A stretch of DNA of 64,000 bases from NCBI RefSeq assembly GCF_947581915.1, contig NZ_CANPWG010000067.1, forward strand, positions 62,001 through 126,000, in the 5' to 3' direction. The notes under the pieces were generated by a model. It was not told the origin of the DNA, did no database searches, and was given only the letters and a program-made list of their open reading frames with translations. The translations under genes and the position numbers were made by a program. Below, in pieces: positions 26,321 through 33,607 of the stretch. Each line of letters begins with the position of its first letter. Position 1 is the first letter of the stretch. Origin of the DNA: Candidatus Palauibacter scopulicola (GTDB lineage Bacteria; Gemmatimonadota; Gemmatimonadetes; Palauibacterales; Palauibacteraceae).

Positions 26321-26531
26321 CGGGCGGAACGACCGGTCCCACGATGCCGACGACGGTCACGGTGCCCTGCAGCTCCTTCTGCGGGTACTCCGTCCGGCTT
26401 TGGCGCGGGGGCCGCAGTTCAGCGACTGGTCGCCCATTCTTGAGGATGACGACGGGTTCCCCCGTCTCGCAGACGCGATCCAGGACAGCGAAGCAGCGGG
26501 TCTTGAAGTCAGATGCGGCGATCGTTTCCAT
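26289..26531 (-). CDS. Phd/YefM-type antitoxin without toxin partner
   Basis: Eighty residues. METIAASDFKTRCFAVLDRV followed by GEPVVILKNGRPVAELRP is the Phd/YefM DNA-binding fold with its usual spacing; the C-terminal part (about 50-80) is the toxin-binding tail. Normally a toxin gene follows directly, but here the 3' end runs into the antisense end of the choice-of-anchor B gene and no toxin frame is present downstream. It may be an orphan, a remnant at the island edge, or act on a distant toxin. Confidence 0.8.
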   Translation of the reverse strand: METIAASDFKTRCFAVLDRVCETGEPVVILKNGRPVAELRPPRQSRTEYPQKELQGTVTVVGIVGPVVPPAKARGRAPAS

Positions 26532-26779
26532 GTGATTTCCGATGGGATTCGTGCGAACGGGCCAACCGTCCGTGGCCGGGATGCAGGTCTCCAGGCTTCG
26601 CAGATTGCTCGCGCCACACGGACACTCCTCCTATTCTTATCGAGGTTTCCTGCGGAGGGAAGAGAAGCTGCCCTGCTCGGGTCCCCACGGTAGGAGAAAC
26701 GAATGCTCTGGGCACTCAAAGCTACTGGTGTTCCACCATTCCGTACGTCTCGAACCTCAGAAGGACGATCCCCCCAACC

Positions 26780-27373
26780 ATGCCACGGCTGAGTTCCAGG
26801 GCCGCTCTTGCGGCTTACCTGCGTGATCATGTCGGGGAGGTCGTCGAATCCGCCGACCTACAGGCTGCTGCCAACCACGCGCTGCAGTACTCGCGCCGCT
26901 TGCGCGAACTACGCCAAGAGGGCTGGAAGATCAGTTCTCATCTTGACCGCGCCGACCTCAAGCCGGGGCAGTATGTGCTCGAGGAACTGCCACCCGACGA
27001 GCCTCCCTATCGTTTCGCGCATTCCATCCCTTCGTCGCTCCGAGCACAAGTCTTGGAACGAAACGGGTATACGTGTCAGATGTGCGGGGCGGGGGCAAGT
27101 GATCTGGACGAACGCGCTGGAGGTCGGCCAACGAAATTGCAAGTGGGCCACATCACCGACTTGAGCCATGGCGGGCAGAATACCCTGTCGAATCTTCGAG
27201 CCCTGTGCAGCACGTGCAATCAGGGAGCAAAGAACCTCGTGCAAGAGCCGCCGAGCTGGGTCTGGCTGCTCAGCCAACTCCGGCGTGCGACAAGAGACGA
27301 CCAACGCCAGGCGCTCGATTGGCTCAGGAACAAGTTCGACGAACCTGCTCGCCGCCGCAGCGAGGTAGATTAG
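26780..27373 (+). CDS. HNH endonuclease of a restriction-modification cassette
   Basis: From ATG 26780 the product has 197 residues. The N-terminal 75 residues resemble a small winged-helix-like domain (VVESADLQAAANHALQYSRRL). The C-terminal HNH domain shows CQMC and CSTC zinc knuckles, the VGHITDLSHGG metal-binding His segment, and NTLSNLRALC, so the nuclease core looks intact. Such HNH proteins often accompany cytosine-5 methyltransferases and cut the same site. About 110 bases separate it from the methyltransferase on the same strand. Confidence 0.88.
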   Translation: MPRLSSRAALAAYLRDHVGEVVESADLQAAANHALQYSRRLRELRQEGWKISSHLDRADLKPGQYVLEELPPDEPPYRFAHSIPSSLRAQVLERNGYTCQMCGAGASDLDERAGGRPTKLQVGHITDLSHGGQNTLSNLRALCSTCNQGAKNLVQEPPSWVWLLSQLRRATRDDQRQALDWLRNKFDEPARRRSEVD

Positions 27374-27482
27374 GAGACGGGGCCGTTTGAACCTCAAGGG
27401 GTGTTGACAGCCGGTTGATGAGCGCCGGAAGATTGGTAACGTGAGACGTAACTCGGGGGGCTAATCGGGAGGAGAGGCGGGA

Positions 27483-28469
27483 TTGCCGACGGTTCTTGAG
27501 ATTTGTGCGGGGGGCGGGGGTCAGGCGCTGGGGCTTGAGAACGCCGGTTTCGAGGCGGTGGGGTTGGTCGAGAACGACCACTACGCTTGCGCGACGCTCC
27601 GAAGGAACCGGCCGGCCTGGCCGGTTTTTGAAACCGATGTTCGGAGGCTCGACCCAGAAGGATTCCGAGGTGTGGACCTTGTTGCCGGGGGCGTACCCTG
27701 TCCTCCCTTTTCGGTCGCCGGGAAACAGCTCGGAGGCGAGGATGAACGGGATCTCTTCCCGGCTGCACTGCACCTGGTCGAACAACTCGACCCTGGTGGG
27801 GTTTTGCTCGAGAACGTGGCAGGCTTCGCTTCACGTCGCTTTATCGCGTACCGACGGGCCCTGATCTCTCGTTTGGACGGGCTGGGATACTGGGTGGATG
27901 CGAGCATCGTGAACGCCCGCGATTTCGGCGTACCGCAGTTGCGGCCGCGGTTCATTCTCGTGGCTGTGAAGAAGCACCTCGCACACTTCTTCGCGTGGCC
28001 CTCATCGACCACACCCGGCGCGTCCGTCGGTGAGGTACTCGTCGATCTGATGGCCTCACGAGGCTGGCCGGGAGCAGCCGAGTGGGCCGCGGGAGCAGAC
28101 GACATCGCGCCCACACTGGTTGGAGGCTCGAAGAAGCATGGCGGTGCGGACCTCGGACCGACCAGGGCTAGGGCCGCGTGGAAGCGACTTGGCGTCAACG
28201 GGCTATCACTTGCGGATGCCCCTCCGGGCCCCGACTTCCCCGTAGGGACGATGCCGCGGCTGACGGTCCGCATGGCGGCACGCATCCAAGGCTTCCCCGA
28301 CACATGGCGTTTCGAGGGAGGCAAGACCGCCGCTTACCGGCAAGTGGGCAACGCATTGCCACCACCTGTCGCCGAAGCCGTCGGTCGATCGCTCCGAGCG
28401 GCCCTGTTGCGGCAGGAACCTGACCTCAGCGCCGAAGAGCAGTTGGTACTTCGATACCAAACCGCATGA
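27483..28469 (+). CDS. DNA (cytosine-5) methyltransferase
   Basis: Three hundred and twenty-eight residues starting at TTG 27483 behind GGAGGAG. Ordered motifs of m5C methyltransferases are all present: I (LEICAGGGGQALGLE), IV with catalytic Cys (GGVPCPPFSVAGKQ), VI (LLENVAGF), VIII (PQLRPRFILVAV) and X (YRQVGNALPPPVA). The target-recognition region lies between about 180 and 265. Because the next gene is an NgoMIV relative, the likely target is GCCGGC or a related site; this is inference. The stop overlaps the endonuclease ATG by four bases. Confidence 0.94.
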   Translation: MPTVLEICAGGGGQALGLENAGFEAVGLVENDHYACATLRRNRPAWPVFETDVRRLDPEGFRGVDLVAGGVPCPPFSVAGKQLGGEDERDLFPAALHLVEQLDPGGVLLENVAGFASRRFIAYRRALISRLDGLGYWVDASIVNARDFGVPQLRPRFILVAVKKHLAHFFAWPSSTTPGASVGEVLVDLMASRGWPGAAEWAAGADDIAPTLVGGSKKHGGADLGPTRARAAWKRLGVNGLSLADAPPGPDFPVGTMPRLTVRMAARIQGFPDTWRFEGGKTAAYRQVGNALPPPVAEAVGRSLRAALLRQEPDLSAEEQLVLRYQTA

Positions 28470-29308
28470 CAAAGGAGATTCTTCATGCGGCCCGCCAAGG
28501 CCTGCACCGGCGGTTACAAGAAAAACTCTGGTCGCTGCAAGACGGGATAGCGAGCAATTCGGACAAGGACAGCCCGACAAGCGTCTCAATCGGGCGCACC
28601 TTGGCGGAGACGCTAGGCGTTCCTTCGGGAAAGCCTCGCCTCAGGGGATCGGCCGCAGGCGCCGAGTTCGAAAGGCAGACCGTTGATTTCCTTCGGGCTA
28701 CTTTTCCGGCCCTGCATCACCTTCGGCCGGGTCACTGGGAGATTGAGCCCGGCTCCGCCATCGCCAAGTTCGAGCAGTACTCCCACCTCGACGCTCTCAA
28801 GGAAGCGGCGGCCGGCAACGCCGCGCTTGCTGCGGTTCTGGGCAGTGATTACACGATCAAGCCCGACATCGTCATCGCCCGGGCGCCTGAGGAAGATGAC
28901 CGAATTAACCGAGAAGCCCCCTTCGTTGGAAACGACACCGCCGGACTCACCCCTCTCCGGAGACGGAACAACTCGCAACATCTCTTGCACGCCAGCGTCT
29001 CCTGCAAGTGGACGATCCGCAGCGACCGAACTCAAAACTCGCGGGCTGAGGCGTTGAATCTGGTCCGCAACCGGAAGGGTCGAGCACCTCACATCGCGGT
29101 CGTAACTGCCGAACCCTTGCCCAGTCGACTCGTTTCAATCGCCATCGGGACCGGCGATATCGACTGCACTTACCATGTAGCGCTTCACGAACTTCGCGAA
29201 GTCGTCGAAGCCTTGGAGTTGGACGACGCCCGGGAAACGCTCGACCTAATGGTCCACGGAAAGCGGCTTCGTGATGTGTCAGACTTGCCGCTTGACCTAG
29301 CCGTCTGA
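28466..29308 (+). CDS. NgoMIV-family type II restriction endonuclease
   Basis: Two hundred and eighty residues, close to NgoMIV (286). The family cuts GCCGGC as a tetramer. Recognisable elements are GAEFERQTVDFL, TIKPDIVIARAPEEDD with the catalytic Asp, the S-x-K core in SVSCKWTIRSDR, and QNSRAEALNLVRNRKG with the extra acidic residue, in the order and spacing of the family. ATG 28466 overlaps the methyltransferase stop (ATGA), so expression is coupled. Base composition is lower than the genome around it. Confidence 0.9.
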   Translation: MTKEILHAARQGLHRRLQEKLWSLQDGIASNSDKDSPTSVSIGRTLAETLGVPSGKPRLRGSAAGAEFERQTVDFLRATFPALHHLRPGHWEIEPGSAIAKFEQYSHLDALKEAAAGNAALAAVLGSDYTIKPDIVIARAPEEDDRINREAPFVGNDTAGLTPLRRRNNSQHLLHASVSCKWTIRSDRTQNSRAEALNLVRNRKGRAPHIAVVTAEPLPSRLVSIAIGTGDIDCTYHVALHELREVVEALELDDARETLDLMVHGKRLRDVSDLPLDLAV

Positions 29309-29317
29309 ACCGCTCTC

Positions 29318-29758
29318 GTGACGGAGTACAACCCCAAGTCCCCTGATGAAATCCACCGCAACATGTCCGCGATTCGAAGCACCGGCGGCAAGACGGAGGT
29401 CGCTCTCCGGTCGATCCTCCACCGACGCGGGCTCAGGTTCCGCAAAAACTACCCGAAGCTCCTGGGCCGACCGGACATCGTGTTCATCGGAGCTCGCGTC
29501 GCCGTGTTCATCGATGGCGATTACTGGCATGCGCGTGTTCTTCGCGAGCGGGGCCCCGAGGCTCTTGAAGCGCAACTCAAGACGTCGAATCAAGCGTACT
29601 GGATCGACAAGTTCACGAAGCGCGTTGTGCGCGACGACCATGTCACTGCCACGCTCCAAAACGAAGGCTGGACGGTGCTGCGGCTCTGGGAATCGGACGT
29701 TCGCGCCGACCTCGATCGTTCGGCGGATCTCATCTCCCACACCGTCCGCAGTTCATAA
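29318..29758 (+). CDS. vsr: Vsr-type mismatch endonuclease
   Basis: Very-short-patch repair nuclease that nicks T:G mismatches left by deamination of 5-methylcytosine. The 146-residue protein has MSAIRSTGGKTEVALRSILH, the catalytic Asp in LLGRPDIVFIGARVAVFIDG, WHAR, YWIDKFTKRVVRDDHVTATL and GWTVLRLWESDV. The zinc-binding Cys of the Escherichia coli enzyme's GCFWH segment is replaced by GDYWH. Start is GTG 29318, ten bases after the endonuclease stop; its place behind an m5C methyltransferase is the classical context. Convergent with the TIR-like gene. Confidence 0.9.
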   Translation: MTEYNPKSPDEIHRNMSAIRSTGGKTEVALRSILHRRGLRFRKNYPKLLGRPDIVFIGARVAVFIDGDYWHARVLRERGPEALEAQLKTSNQAYWIDKFTKRVVRDDHVTATLQNEGWTVLRLWESDVRADLDRSADLISHTVRSS

Positions 29759-29815: not shown

Positions 29816-30331
29816 CTACCTACTCCCTCCCCGTTCCTCCGCCGCCCTTTCCACCGCACGACTCAGGTCACGGTGCCTCCACGGTACGACCCGAATTGCC
29901 TTCTCCCCGATAACGGCAGGCATCCTCGCCGGCGGAGCCTTCCCCTGATACATGCCCACGACGCCCTTCCCTAGTCTCAGGCTCTCCCGCACCTCCCAGT
30001 CGACCCAACGACTCTCCGCCGTCTCACCCGAAAGAAACACGATCGTTACTGAACATTGCCTAATCCGCTCCCTGATTTTTCGCCGAATATACTCCGCTTC
30101 ACCGCTGTCGAAGGGCACCTTCACCGACCAATCTTTGAACTCCAGTTCGCTGTTCTCGTTCCTTGCTTGTCCTCTGAGGAGGTTCACCGAATCAAGATCG
30201 GTCGAGTTGAAGCTCAAGAACACGTTTCGCTTCTGCCCCTCACCATCCCCCCTCAGAATCCTCTTCGCCTCCCGTTCCAGCCGCCTCAGATCGCTAGGAT
30301 CGACTCCAGCGCTTCCACCACTTCCCCCCAT
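29816..30331 (-). CDS. TIR-like (DUF1863/ThsB-type) protein with Gly-rich N-terminus
   Basis: Last gene of the QueC/TGT/OGG/SLATT operon. ATG 30331 is fixed by GGGGAGGA ending seven bases upstream, inside the QueC 3' end; only two bases separate the QueC stop from it. The 171 residues begin MGGSGGSAG, then a charged helix (about 12-30) and a flavodoxin-like TIR-like domain: RNVFLSFNSTDLDSV (35-49), FKDWSVKVPF, IRRKIRERIRQCSVTIVFLS, and SRWVDWEVRESLRLGK with Glu113 where TIR NADases carry the catalytic Glu. ThsB proteins of Thoeris make a cyclic ADP-ribose signal from NAD on infection. Here it may produce the signal for the SLATT protein; NADase activity is inferred. Confidence 0.85.
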   Translation of the reverse strand: MGGSGGSAGVDPSDLRRLEREAKRILRGDGEGQKRNVFLSFNSTDLDSVNLLRGQARNENSELEFKDWSVKVPFDSGEAEYIRRKIRERIRQCSVTIVFLSGETAESRWVDWEVRESLRLGKGVVGMYQGKAPPARMPAVIGEKAIRVVPWRHRDLSRAVERAAEERGGSR

Positions 30332-30333
30332 TT

Positions 30334-30936
30334 CTAATCCTCCCCTTCTCTCTTGGCATCGGCAATTTCCCGGCACGCGATGCAGCCGCCGCACACCTCC
30401 TCCTCGCCCGCATGACACGAGTACGTTTTCGATACCCCCCTTTCCCTGGCCAACCTCAACACGTCTCGCTTTGAGCACCCTATTAGCGGCGCTAGCACCG
30501 ACACGCTTCTTCCCACAGACAGCCGAATGGCATCTTCTGCGCGGTTGACGAATTCCTCCGTCTGGTCATCAAACAGTCGTCGCCCCGGATCCAATAAACC
30601 GAGGGCAACCCCGTCTGCTCCGACCTCGACTGCATACGCCGCCCCCGCAACGAGCAACAAGAGATTTCGACCGGGCTGAAACGCATCTTCGTACACGTGC
30701 TGCTTGGGATCCGTTAAGCCGCTCGAGACGAGGCGACCGAAGTCACACAGATCGACCCGCTCTACCGTTGGCAGGCCAAATCGTGCGTGCACGTGCTGAC
30801 ACGCGAACCATTCCAACCTCGCGCTTCTTTGCCCATAGTTCACGAATAACGGGAACAGTTTGATTCCCTCTTCTTGAGCCAGAAGACTCATTACGGTCGA
30901 GTCGATTCCACCTGACACCAAGGTTACTATCGCCAT
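30334..30936 (-). CDS. QueC-like 7-cyano-7-deazaguanine synthase homologue
   Basis: Two hundred residues. PP-loop SGGIDST (8-14) binds ATP; VNYGQRSARLEW, PGRNLLLLVAGAAYA and the four zinc cysteines Cys174, 182, 185 and 188 follow as in QueC, which turns 7-carboxy-7-deazaguanine into preQ0. No queD, queE or folE genes are nearby, so it would need precursor from elsewhere, or acts on another target. It overlaps the OGG-like stop by ten bases. QueC-like genes are a marker of type IV CBASS (Cap9) and of the Qat system. As I recall, some defence QueC homologues attach the deazaguanine to protein N-termini; this has not been checked here. Confidence 0.92.
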   Translation of the reverse strand: MAIVTLVSGGIDSTVMSLLAQEEGIKLFPLFVNYGQRSARLEWFACQHVHARFGLPTVERVDLCDFGRLVSSGLTDPKQHVYEDAFQPGRNLLLLVAGAAYAVEVGADGVALGLLDPGRRLFDDQTEEFVNRAEDAIRLSVGRSVSVLAPLIGCSKRDVLRLARERGVSKTYSCHAGEEEVCGGCIACREIADAKREGED

Positions 30937-31616
30937 AGTGTCGTTTCCCTTTTTGCAGTTCGCACAACCAGCCAGACGGCCATGTCGAATGCCGCCGGCG
31001 AATATCCTCGCTTGTCAGCATACGCCATGAACAACTCCTCAAGTCCCTCGTATCGTGACAGCGTGTTTATCGTCCTGACACCCGACTCAATAATACCGAT
31101 CCAGTGCAAGTACGTGAGGACATGTACGTCTAGTACGGCAAGTCGCCTTGCAAAGCCGATGGTTCTCAAGTACAAGCTTGCCTGCTTCGGCCCTATGCCA
31201 GGTATCTCCGCCGCAAACGTCCGCCGTACGTCATCTTCCCCATCACCGTCACCCAGGAGGCCTCGGATAGACCCCCCATCATCATACACACGTTCCGCGG
31301 CTCCGCGAATGTGACCTGCCGTTCTCCGAAAAAACCTGTATCCTCTTCCCAGCGACAGCAGTGTCGCGTGTTCGGGTTCGTCGAGTCCACCTCGCCACCG
31401 GTCGGCCGACAGGAGCCCAGCTCGACCCAGTCGTCCCAGCGCAGCGTGACTCACCTCCCAGTGAACGCGACTCCCCAAAATACACCAGACAAGTTCCCGC
31501 CATAGATCATCCTCGCTATGGCCCTCCCATACCGGCACTGGTCGAATGTCGAGTTCGTGGTAAACAACTCGTATCGCCTCGTCGATCCGCGACAGCTCCC
31601 TTCCGGCCTTCCTCAT
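30927..31616 (-). CDS. OGG-like HhH-GPD DNA glycosylase/lyase homologue
   Basis: From ATG 31616 (ATGA overlap with the TGT-like stop; GGGGGA upstream) the protein has 229 residues. ELVWCILGSRVHWEV is the family's helical opening, and the helix-hairpin-helix EIPGIGPKQASLYLR (137-151) with Lys144 plus VLDVHVL with Asp163 are the catalytic Lys/Asp pair of bifunctional glycosylases. The core is therefore intact. In housekeeping context such enzymes remove 8-oxoguanine; between a TGT-like and a QueC-like gene it more likely handles a 7-deazaguanine-type base or a base-modified adduct. It corresponds to the OGG component of type IV CBASS. Confidence 0.88.
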   Translation of the reverse strand: MRKAGRELSRIDEAIRVVYHELDIRPVPVWEGHSEDDLWRELVWCILGSRVHWEVSHAALGRLGRAGLLSADRWRGGLDEPEHATLLSLGRGYRFFRRTAGHIRGAAERVYDDGGSIRGLLGDGDGEDDVRRTFAAEIPGIGPKQASLYLRTIGFARRLAVLDVHVLTYLHWIGIIESGVRTINTLSRYEGLEELFMAYADKRGYSPAAFDMAVWLVVRTAKRETTLWR

Positions 31617-32599
31617 TGCGCCGTGTCCCCCTTCTGGCACGCCTCGAGCAATCGGGTCAGGACCGCCCCTCCGACGTGTTCCCCAAGGAGCGCGTCTAGA
31701 GTTCCGGCACTCCGGGCAACCCGTAACCGCCTCATGAACTGGTCGTAAAATCGCAGATTATAAAATAGCGGGTGAATTGCCCACGGCCACTCCGGCCCTG
31801 AATCGACCGAACTGCCGTCCTGAAGCAAGTCCCAATGTTCGAACGGGAGCACTCTGCCGGTCTCGTGATCAATCACTTGCCGACACCACTCGAGACCGTC
31901 GAAACTGTCCGCTCCTGCTAAGCTGTACGTGATGAGGGACACCGGATGTCCCGTACCCAGGATATGTAGAGGGACATACGCCGGCAGCTCATTCAGAGAC
32001 AACCGAATGCGCCGTATCATCCCCGCTCGATCGATCAGGCCACGACCGAGCCTTCGTTCGGGCACTGCCAGCATCATGGGTTCGATCGCCTGCGCTGTAA
32101 GGTGCACCGCCTCCCGGATAACTGACGGTCGACCATGAACGATTGGAATGACGGTCCCATTTCCGCACTCTTGTGCGCGCACTACACTTTCTTCAACGGC
32201 CTCCGCAATTGCCTGAGCTGTCTCGGGCGGGTGGTGGCTATCGTACACAAACCTATAGTCGTGCGGCACCTCGGAGACAACTTCATCGAACGCCGACGCG
32301 TCCCACTCCGCGTCCGTCCGCCACTGACCCTCATAGGTTCCGCTGTCCAAAAAGACACCGCCGCCGTTCGTCCGCTGCCGTTGGAGCAACTGTACAACTT
32401 GGCGCCGCACTCCATCGGTACACTGCGCCACATCAAATGCGGAGAGCAGGAACGGCCCCCCTCGCCCGACCAGCAACGTCAGACACTCCAACATCGAAGC
32501 CTTTGTCCTTATGCTTGACACTGACGGAACGAAGTTCGGAAGGGCCACTGACCATCCCGCAATCGGCAACCCGTCAGCCGCCTCTTGTATCAAGTCCAT
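31613..32599 (-). CDS. TGT/DpdA-like guanine transglycosylase homologue
   Basis: The 328-residue protein keeps the TIM-barrel landmarks of tRNA-guanine transglycosylases: GGVFLDSGTYEGQW with Asp85 (first catalytic Asp), VHGRPS, LHILGTGHPVSLI (212-223), AGADSFDGLEW with Asp231/Asp234 in the nucleophile loop, and YNLRFYDQFMRRLR near the C-terminus. The CxCxxC zinc site of classical TGT is missing; scattered cysteines do not make one. Zinc-less relatives occur as DpdA and in type IV CBASS (Cap10). It may swap a base in nucleic acid or transfer a deazaguanine to another acceptor. A GGGAGGGG lies ten bases before ATG 32599. Confidence 0.87.
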   Translation of the reverse strand: MDLIQEAADGLPIAGWSVALPNFVPSVSSIRTKASMLECLTLLVGRGGPFLLSAFDVAQCTDGVRRQVVQLLQRQRTNGGGVFLDSGTYEGQWRTDAEWDASAFDEVVSEVPHDYRFVYDSHHPPETAQAIAEAVEESVVRAQECGNGTVIPIVHGRPSVIREAVHLTAQAIEPMMLAVPERRLGRGLIDRAGMIRRIRLSLNELPAYVPLHILGTGHPVSLITYSLAGADSFDGLEWCRQVIDHETGRVLPFEHWDLLQDGSSVDSGPEWPWAIHPLFYNLRFYDQFMRRLRVARSAGTLDALLGEHVGGAVLTRLLEACQKGDTAQ

Positions 32600-32632
32600 A
32601 ACCTGACGCCCCTCCCGAGACGTTCGACCGTT

Positions 32633-33607
32633 CTACGCCAACTCGTCCGTTGACTTCAAATCGGCCTCCGGTTGTCTAGCTCTTCCTGCAGATCGAGCAT
32701 GCCAAAGTGTATGTTCCCGTGAAATCGCATTTTCGATCTGACGGACTAGCCCCGCCAGCCCCTCCTCGCGGTCGATTTCGGCCTCCAGGGCTTCGAGATC
32801 TAGTAGTTCCTGTGCTGTGATCGAGTAAGTATACGCCAACTCACTGTAGCGGCGCATACGCGTCCACGCCACTGCAGATGCGGCGGCGGTTGTCAAAAAC
32901 GGTATCAAGTTTAGGGTTATGGTTGGAGTGATTGCTATTGCCACGCCACAGCCAATAGCGGCAATCTGGAGGAATATGGCACCAATCAGCCAGCGCTTTT
33001 GCAGCGTCGCGTTGCGAGTCGCCTTTCGCGCATACCACACCCTTTGATTCTGCAGGCGCTGCTCTCGATACACCTGTCGTCTCTGCTCCCAAGGAGCCTG
33101 CCGCAGACGCATCATGGAGTCGCTTATCATCTGATCGCTGTCGGAGATGCTAGGTGTGAGGCGGTCTAAGACCGCAGGGTTCGAGTGACGTATTGTGCGA
33201 AGGCAGGCGATGAAGGCCTCGACTAGGCTCTGGTCGTTGGCGAAGGGAGGCGACTTCGTAACGAACTGCCAGCTGGCGGTTTTTACGGATTCGGCGATCA
33301 CGCGGCACTGAAACCAGGCAAGTTCATCCTTACGGAGATAGGCGATCCACGTGAGCAGGACGCCTATCCCGAGTGCCAACGTGGACAAGACGTGCAACCA
33401 GCGACCGATTGTCGAGTCAACGACGGCGGACGTGGCGGCCGCGGCGCTACCAAGAACCAAGCACGTGATATGGTACTTTTGGAACGTGAAGAAGAGGCGC
33501 TGAGCTGCGCCTGCCGCGCTGTCAGCTTGAGTATACAGGGCGGGCAGATCGAGATCGGCGCGGGGCGACGCTGTGGAAGCGGGCGAGGGCGTGTCCTTAC
33601 CGGACAT
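32633..33607 (-). CDS. Tandem SLATT (DUF4231-like) membrane effector
   Basis: First gene of the defence operon. ATG 33607 follows AAGGAG by six bases. The 324 residues hold two units each with a pair of membrane helices: about 45-63 with 70-91, then ELAWFQCRVIAESVKTASWQF, a SLATT signature; and about 206-225 with 230-248, then a long helix (LLDLEALEAEIDREEG) and AISREHTLWHARS, the usual SLATT end. SLATT proteins are predicted pore-forming effectors coupled to nucleotide-signal generators in defence operons. It begins 15 bases behind the MFS stop, so the operon promoter must lie within or before the MFS gene. Confidence 0.88.
   Translation of the reverse strand: MSGKDTPSPASTASPRADLDLPALYTQADSAAGAAQRLFFTFQKYHITCLVLGSAAAATSAVVDSTIGRWLHVLSTLALGIGVLLTWIAYLRKDELAWFQCRVIAESVKTASWQFVTKSPPFANDQSLVEAFIACLRTIRHSNPAVLDRLTPSISDSDQMISDSMMRLRQAPWEQRRQVYREQRLQNQRVWYARKATRNATLQKRWLIGAIFLQIAAIGCGVAIAITPTITLNLIPFLTTAAASAVAWTRMRRYSELAYTYSITAQELLDLEALEAEIDREEGLAGLVRQIENAISREHTLWHARSAGRARQPEADLKSTDELA

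What the first reader, a model, noticed from the sequence alone, without database searches (positions are those of the whole stretch)
29816..33607. QueC/TGT/OGG cassette with a TIR-like protein and a SLATT effector but no CD-NTase
Five genes on one strand (SLATT, TGT-like, OGG-like, QueC-like, TIR-like) are coupled by 4-10 base overlaps or 2-33 base gaps, so they act together. Seen directly: PP-loop and four zinc cysteines in QueC, catalytic Lys/Asp in the OGG-like protein, Asp pair in the TGT-like protein, TIR-like fold with Glu, paired membrane helices in SLATT. Known: QueC, TGT and OGG homologues together are the accessory set of type IV CBASS, where a CD-NTase makes the signal. No CD-NTase motif is present in the operon or beside it. 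Inferred: a TIR-like signal maker (as in Thoeris ThsB) drives a SLATT membrane effector, and the deazaguanine set modifies or licenses one of them. This would join Thoeris, SLATT and type IV CBASS parts in one new system.
Basis: partly seen in the sequence, partly recalled or inferred. Interest (0 to 1): 0.95.

Follow-up and report, generated by a model that had tools for sequence, protein, structure and literature searches.

The report
TIR immune operon with deazaguanine tagging
Five neighbouring bacterial genes look like an anti-virus alarm in which an enzyme borrowed from nucleobase metabolism probably tags the alarm protein itself, joining parts of two known bacterial immune systems in a combination we did not find described.

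Summary
The five-gene operon is real (SLATT, TGT-like, OGG-like, QueC-like, TIR; minus strand, 33607-29816) and conserved. One scan with the TGT-like family kept 80 loci; with the window and three plasmid loci, 80 of 84 hold TGT-OGG-QueC-TIR in that order (two lack OGG, one looks decayed, one runs off its contig). No CD-NTase was found in the 84. The decisive new point is the TIR's true start, MGGSGGSAG: the Gly-rich tail that type IV CBASS CD-NTases need for N-terminal deazaguanylation by the QueC homologue Cap9. In 81 of 82 loci the TIR beside QueC starts MGG; none of 33 other TIR frames in these loci does, nor any of 15 distinct other ThsB-type frames read in the phylum. The QueC keeps its ATP, zinc and guanine-recognition residues; the TGT-like profile matches Cap10 best in the PDB; the TIR has the ThsB fold and an invariant catalytic Glu. 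Best reading: a Thoeris-like TIR alarm licensed by deazaguanylation of its own N-terminus, with a SLATT membrane effector. The chemistry, the signal and phage protection are inferred. A 2025 preprint surveying TIR systems could not be read and may already contain it.

The parts
32633..33607 (-). SLATT membrane protein, 324 aa, two tandem SLATT units (SLATT_3 + SLATT_1); proposed effector
   Evidence: Pfam; model mean pLDDT 86.5 with helices 23-60, 65-92, 94-116 and 173-226, 235-252, 254-275, 281-310
31613..32599 (-). TGT-like protein, Cap10-type, 328 aa; proposed reader of the modified TIR tail
   Evidence: Best PDB sequence match of its family profile is Cap10 9ntn, E 1.9e-12; many conserved positions shared with the Cap10 of two type IV CBASS loci
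30927..31616 (-). OGG-like helix-hairpin-helix glycosylase/lyase, 229 aa from ATG; accessory, role unknown
   Evidence: Ogg-HhH 9.3e-21; hairpin Lys and the Asp conserved 0.99 and 1.0 over 82 loci; not found in L025 and L046
30334..30936 (-). QueC-like enzyme, 200 aa; proposed Cap9-type protein deazaguanylase
   Evidence: QueC 6.6e-33; profile matches Cap9 9nto at 1.1e-29, after two canonical QueC structures; SGGxDS, RN, Asp124 and four Cys invariant in 82 loci
29816..30331 (-). TIR protein, ThsB type, 171 aa, begins MGGSGGSAG; proposed signal maker and target of modification
   Evidence: ThsB_TIR 5.6e-22; fold match Z 17.8 to B. cereus TIR 8fz9 and 11.3-15.6 to structures named ThsB; Glu113 invariant in 56 sequences
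30230..30331 (-). coding stretch of the TIR tail: MGGS acceptor, residues 1-11 unstructured in the model, helix 12-27, linker
   Evidence: MGG start in 81 of 82 loci; model

Best explanation
This is a TIR-based immune operon controlled by protein deazaguanylation. (1) After removal of Met1, the QueC-like enzyme uses ATP to join 7-carboxy-7-deazaguanine, or a close relative, to Gly2 of the TIR, as Cap9 does to type IV CBASS CD-NTases. (2) The Cap10-type TGT-like protein binds the tagged tail and holds or presents the TIR. (3) On infection the TIR uses its conserved Glu to turn NAD+ into an ADP-ribose-type messenger. (4) The messenger opens the SLATT membrane protein and the infected cell stops. 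Shown here: gene set, order, spread, MGG tail, conserved active-site residues, predicted folds, no CD-NTase found. The OGG-like protein is accessory and has no proposed step.
For: MGG start of the TIR beside QueC in 81 of 82 loci, against 0 of 33 other TIR frames in the same loci and 0 of 15 distinct other frames read for 17 further ThsB_TIR hits in 150 genomes of the phylum. The start codon lies -14 to +21 nt from the queC stop in the 80 read directly. Type IV CBASS CD-NTases carry MGGS, needed for the modification (PMC13279940); L006 and L112 show it beside QueC and TGT. A profile of TIR tails run over 10,443 N-termini gives these two CD-NTases as the best hits outside TIR frames, weakly (E 0.008 and 0.034). 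QueC keeps Asp124, equal to Cap9 Asp117, in 82 of 82. The TGT-like profile matches Cap10 first in the PDB. TIR Glu113 invariant in 56, ThsB fold. A TIR-SLATT pair exists without QueC and its TIR lacks the tail. In plasmids the 13 records with the close TIR (48.8% identity or more) are the same 13 with a TGT match over 80% or more of the query.
Against: No biochemistry. The QueC of this family has Phe and Gln where Cap9 and QueC have Tyr and Cys (F122 in 81 of 82, Q125 in 82 of 82), so the base or reaction may differ. QueD (PF01242) was not found in the window's genome nor in 5 of 42 other hosts, and 3 of the 37 others have only weak matches, so the source of the precursor is open. One locus (L016) starts MAGS. 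The third CD-NTase tail tried (9ntn) scored below two unrelated N-termini (E 0.44). SLATT was found in 52 of 84 loci, so the effector may vary. The SLATT protein has no other Pfam domain that would bind a messenger.
Confidence: 0.66

Rival explanations
1. The tag is a lock or a bait, not an activator: the tagged TIR is held silent by the TGT-like protein, and loss of the tag or of 7-deazaguanine during infection frees it. The system would then monitor the deazaguanine pool or its attack by phage enzymes, with the OGG-like glycosylase helping.
For: The same parts fit: conserved tail, Cap10-type binder, a glycosylase with its catalytic Lys and Asp kept.
Against: In type IV CBASS the modification is required for defence (PMC11996544 abstract), not for silence. 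OGG was not found in L025 and L046, which keep TGT, QueC and TIR.
Confidence: 0.14
2. The TIR destroys NAD+ itself and the SLATT protein is a separate or optional killer; no diffusible messenger links them. Deazaguanylation still licenses the TIR.
For: SLATT was not found in 32 of 84 loci, though some contigs are short. Some TIRs act as direct NADase effectors (PMC12847820, passages).
Against: The window TIR is a small ThsB-type domain, the messenger-making kind; SLATT lies just before TGT in the window and in L015-L018 and L069; a TIR-SLATT pair exists alone.
Confidence: 0.11
3. The QueC, TGT and OGG proteins make and insert a modified base in RNA or DNA, and the TIR and SLATT genes are a separate defence module beside them.
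For: All three belong to nucleobase families; OGG homologues act on DNA (established knowledge of the family).
Against: The TGT-like profile matches Cap10, not a tRNA enzyme, best in the PDB. The MGG tail was seen only on the TIR beside QueC. The host has its own canonical QueC and TGT. The order is kept across phyla.
Confidence: 0.06
4. It is a type IV CBASS whose CD-NTase lies elsewhere in the genome.
For: The window's genome has a CD-NTase on another contig, and 10 of 42 other hosts searched have a PF18144 match somewhere.
Against: The window genome's CD-NTase starts MGLAAWF, without the tail, and has its own SLATT_4 neighbour. 32 of 42 host genomes searched have no PF18144 match. No CD-NTase matched in 84 loci with 15 queries.
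Confidence: 0.03

Closest known systems
Type IV CBASS (CD-NTase with Cap9 QueC and Cap10 TGT)
   Same: QueC-like and Cap10-like proteins; glycine-rich MGGS tail on the presumed signal maker; in L006 and L112 a small protein with hydrophobic stretches (read by eye) lies next to the CD-NTase
   Different: The signal maker is a ThsB-type TIR, not a CD-NTase; QueC has Phe and Gln in place of the Tyr and Cys of the YxDC motif
Thoeris (ThsB TIR with a messenger-activated effector)
   Same: ThsB-type TIR with catalytic Glu and ThsB fold; effector candidate in the same operon
   Different: Adds QueC, TGT-like and OGG-like genes and an N-terminal tail; effector candidate is SLATT, not SIR2, TM-macro or caspase-like
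qatABCD (QatB with MGTS tail, QatC)
   Same: A QueC-family protein paired with a partner that starts Met-Gly and has a flexible tail (PMC13279940)
   Different: QatC is larger and has Thr/Thr at the base-recognition site; no TIR, TGT or SLATT in that system
TIR-SLATT (DUF4231) pair of the Natronomonas gomsonensis plasmid, L123
   Same: TIR next to a SLATT/DUF4231 protein
   Different: No QueC set annotated within 6 kb, and the TIR starts MPTRRVF with no tail

Membership tests
Type IV CBASS | CD-NTase in the operon | tested here: not met
   None among the five genes; 15 queries (3 CD-NTases, 12 frames picked at PF18144 hits) found none in 84 loci at E 1e-3; a single-sequence model found none either
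Type IV CBASS | Cap9-type QueC with ATP, zinc and guanine-recognition residues | tested here: inconclusive
   Kept in 82 loci, but Tyr to Phe in 81 and Cys to Gln in 82 of the YxDC motif; a quick tree puts cassette QueC and Cap9 on separate branches, with long-branch warnings
Type IV CBASS | Cap10-type TGT | tested here: met
   Profile matches Cap10 9ntn at 1.9e-12, next best (archaeosine TGT) 4.7e-6
Type IV CBASS | MGGS tail on the signal maker | tested here: met
   Present, but on the TIR: MGG in 81 of 82 loci; fourth residue Gly in 45 and Ser in 30 of 81 read
Thoeris | ThsB-type TIR | tested here: met
   ThsB_TIR 5.6e-22; Z 17.8 to 8fz9, 132 aligned, rmsd 2.3; Z 15.6 to EcThsB2, 135 aligned, rmsd 3.0
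Thoeris | SIR2, TM-macro or caspase-like effector (types named in PMC12847820, passages) | tested here: not met
   The effector candidate is SLATT. Further Thoeris types exist in print (type VI) whose effectors I could not read
Thoeris | TIR makes an ADP-ribose-type messenger on infection | not testable with these tools
   Needs enzyme assay
qatABCD | QatC with Thr/Thr base site and extensions; QatA, QatB and QatD | tested here: not met
   QueC is 200 aa with Phe122/Asp124; the other genes fall in other Pfam families
Queuosine biosynthesis QueC | YPDC motif and QueD/QueE neighbours | tested here: not met
   FDDQ in the window, F-P-D-Q in most loci; neighbours are TGT-like, OGG and TIR; NCBIfam QueC score 111.7 against cut-off 150.3

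The most novel reading that the evidence does not exclude
The nucleobase tag is an assembly switch for TIRs. The TGT-like protein binds the deazaguanylated tail of the cassette TIR and so brings TIR domains together to form an active site. In 45 of 84 loci the TGT-like protein carries its own TIR domain, which would make the tag the glue between two TIRs. The same Gly-rich tail would then be a portable module moved between CD-NTases and TIRs, and deazaguanylation a general licence for immune signal makers.
Probability: 0.25. Interest if true: 0.95.

Novelty: new variant of a known kind. Interest (0 to 1): 0.85.

Why it matters
Protein deazaguanylation is known for one class of immune enzyme (CD-NTases) and proposed for QatB. 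A conserved acceptor tail on TIR proteins, in bacteria of many phyla and one archaeal MAG, would make it a shared control step of two major bacterial alarm systems, CBASS and Thoeris. It gives a one-residue prediction (Gly2) that can be tested at once, and suggests that deazaguanine metabolism is watched by, or feeds, antiviral immunity.

Tried and rejected
Rejected: (a) type IV CBASS with a remote CD-NTase. (b) Ordinary queuosine genes: the host has its own canonical QueC and TGT, and the motif differs. (c) qatABCD. (d) Calling an OGG homologue in the type IV CBASS locus L112: that gene had no Pfam match and BLASTP to the window OGG gave E 0.31, so no claim is made.

Led nowhere: the viral-contig scan with the TGT-like protein and the phage-record search with the TIR found no match. 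A search for type IV CD-NTases in 398 Pseudomonadota genomes gave none at 1e-20, without a positive control. QueE with one Deinococcus query gave none in the host, without a positive control. The SLATT model had no PDB or viral match at E 0.001 or better; folds not listed there are not excluded. PDB sequence search with SLATT gave one chance-level hit (E 0.85).

Literature: ten searches listed no title or abstract start on a TIR-QueC operon; lists were capped at 10 to 25 rows. Read: PMC13279940, parts 1-3 of 6 and passages; PMC13329287, parts 1-2 of 5 and passages, neither main text holding the word TIR by term search; PMC11996544, abstract; passages of PMC10952713, PMC9503650, PMC13232231, PMC12847820. 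Not readable and possible prior art: Yirmiya 2025 bioRxiv 10.64898/2025.12.03.692087, seen only as a reference, the full text of the Wassarman preprint (only its abstract is held), and JB.00365-20. The catalytic roles of the TIR Glu and the OGG Lys and Asp are recalled family knowledge.

L052 was first taken for a contig end; it has a broken OGG and no QueC or TIR detected in the sequence that follows.
Full report
The operon. Five genes run on the minus strand: SLATT 33607-32633, TGT-like 32599-31613, OGG-like 31616-30927, QueC-like 30936-30334, TIR 30331-29816. Pfam confirms each family. Gaps and overlaps are +33, -4, -10 and +2 nt. The stretch from 26 to 34 kb has 57-63% G+C against mostly 66-72% elsewhere in the window. 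A search with the TGT-like profile found none in the 15 other same-genus genomes listed, so it looks acquired. The host is a Gemmatimonadota genome by inference: genome G025, of the same class, carries the cassette on a 157,283-base contig, and so does the record of L087, titled Gemmatimonadetes.

The key detail. The TIR frame can be read upstream into queC, but the ATG 2 nt after the queC stop follows an AAGGGGAGG stretch and gives MGGSGGSAGVDPSDLRRLEREAKRILRG. In type IV CBASS, Cap9 joins 7-carboxy-7-deazaguanine to the N-terminal Gly of a CD-NTase, and the MGGS motif of the CD-NTase is required (PMC13279940); Cap10, a TGT-family protein, binds the modified tail (PMC11996544 abstract). Two type IV CBASS loci met here have CD-NTases that start MGGSGGGFFSN (L006, Pseudanabaena plasmid) and MGGSGGSYFSS (L112, from the window's own phylum).

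Spread. One scan of genome contigs with the TGT-like family (A2, four rows) kept 80 loci of 91 relatives. With the window and three Rhizobiaceae plasmid loci this gives 84. In 80 of 84, TGT, OGG, QueC and TIR follow each other on one strand. L025 and L046 lack a detectable OGG; L084 ends at its contig end; L052 has a broken OGG and no QueC or TIR detected in the sequence after it. Of 83 loci with a looked-up origin, 54 are Pseudomonadota; the others include Acidobacteriota, Planctomycetota, Thermodesulfobacteriota, Bacillota, Nitrospirota, Myxococcota, Gemmatimonadota and more, and one archaeal MAG (15 named phyla; five loci without one). In a sample of 398 Pseudomonadota genomes, five hold a match, one of them the centre genome, a known carrier. 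The scan used the TGT-like protein, so it selects for this kind of cassette, but not for the tail.

The tail. Of 82 loci with a TIR beside QueC, 80 start MGG as read; L048 is frameshifted and its first piece starts MGG; L016 starts MAGS. Starts were chosen in favour of MGG where several were open, but they lie -14 to +21 nt from the queC stop (78 ATG, 1 GTG, 1 TTG). There are 69 distinct first-30-residue sequences among 81 read. The controls allowed any start within 80 codons. Other TIR frames in the same loci: 35 counted, less two pieces of the L048 TIR, leaves 33, of which none starts with GG; one of the 33 is a piece of the frameshifted L013 TIR. In 150 genomes of the phylum, 19 ThsB_TIR hits include two beside QueC, both MGG; for the other 17 the script read 15 distinct frames, three of them found only weakly (E 0.01 to 0.1), and none starts with GG. 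Nor do the TIRs of a TIR-SLATT pair (L123) and a TIR-caspase pair (L124). A profile of 67 tails run over 10,443 N-termini gives the CD-NTases of L112 and L006 as best hits outside TIR frames (E 0.008 and 0.034), then an unrelated glycine-rich stretch (0.077), another unrelated one (0.32) and the third CD-NTase, 9ntn (0.44): suggestive only. The AlphaFold model (mean pLDDT 81.9) has no structure in residues 1-11, a helix 12-27, and the TIR fold from 35.

The enzymes. In 82 loci the QueC keeps SGGxDS, Gln36, Arg90-Asn91, Asp124 and the four zinc cysteines. Asp124 aligns with Cap9 Asp117, which reads the guanine edge (PMC13279940); QatC has lost it (same paper). Phe replaces Tyr in 81 of 82; in E. 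coli QueC the Tyr to Phe change of this motif leaves partial activity (PMC13329287). Gln replaces Cys in 82 of 82. F-x-D-Q thus marks a QueC subfamily. A quick tree of 36 cassette QueC (of 82), 3 Cap9 and 4 canonical rows puts the cassette set on one side of a branch (SH-aLRT 98), with long-branch warnings. The TGT-like profile matches Cap10 9ntn first in the PDB (1.9e-12; next 4.7e-6). OGG keeps its hairpin Lys (0.99) and Asp (1.0) over 82. TIR Glu113 is invariant in 56 sequences. The TIR model matches 8fz9 at Z 17.8 and structures named ThsB at Z 11.3 to 15.6.

The effector. The window SLATT is two SLATT units in one chain. In L015-L018 and L069 a full SLATT gene lies just before TGT as in the window; in L011 and L013 a TIR gene lies between. 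Another group has a small protein there: of 17 members scanned (14 real, one spurious frame, two CBASS comparators), 14 match DUF4231 and 14 SLATT_1. Rhizobiaceae and many others have PfkB (38 loci) and TPR-S/TRAF-binding genes (43 loci) nearby. SLATT was found anywhere in the locus in 46 loci by model and 52 with six more read; the rest may be cut off or use other effectors. SLATT has been predicted to be an ADP-ribose-derivative-regulated effector and is seen with TIRs in phages (PMC9503650 passage). In 45 loci the TGT-like protein is fused to a second TIR.

CD-NTases. None in 84 loci with 15 queries. I searched the genomes behind 42 of the 80 loci: 32 have no PF18144 match, 10 have one or more. 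The window's genome has one on contig C49, starting MGLAAWF with a SLATT_4 neighbour, a separate CBASS-like pair.

Open points. The precursor: the host has canonical QueC and TGT but no QueD family match; five of 42 other hosts also lack it and three more match only weakly. Drafts are incomplete, so this is not a refutation, but it leaves the source of the base open. OGG has no clear step. No experiment was done here, and one relevant preprint could not be read.

Verdict. It works like type IV CBASS in its tagging step and like Thoeris in its signal step, and is a member of neither as defined.

Noticed in passing
window 26513-29758, + strand: A restriction-modification set faces the operon: HNH protein, C5 cytosine methylase, NgoMIV-family restriction enzyme (Pfam 9.8e-102) and Vsr endonuclease. 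The low-G+C stretch seems to be a defence island.
   Followed up: partly
L111 7143-8694 (window's genome, contig C49): A CD-NTase (SMODS 2.3e-54) followed by a SLATT_4 protein (8.8e-67): a separate CBASS-like pair in the same genome.
   Followed up: partly
L003, L004, L005 and many Pseudomonadota loci: The TGT-like protein is fused to a second TIR domain in 45 of 84 loci; 37 of these 45 also have a PfkB-family kinase gene in the locus. The kinase's role is unknown.
   Followed up: partly
L123 5543-6495 (Natronomonas gomsonensis plasmid): A two-gene DUF4231/SLATT-TIR pair in a haloarchaeal plasmid, possibly a minimal TIR system with a SLATT effector.
   Followed up: no
L112 6654-10528 (same phylum, genome G201): A type IV CBASS-like locus with QueC, TGT, MGGS CD-NTase and a small protein with hydrophobic stretches, plus one further gene without a Pfam match.
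   Followed up: partly
window genome G000: Canonical QueC and TGT are present but no QueD family protein was found, so the host's deazaguanine pathway looks incomplete or unusual.
   Followed up: partly
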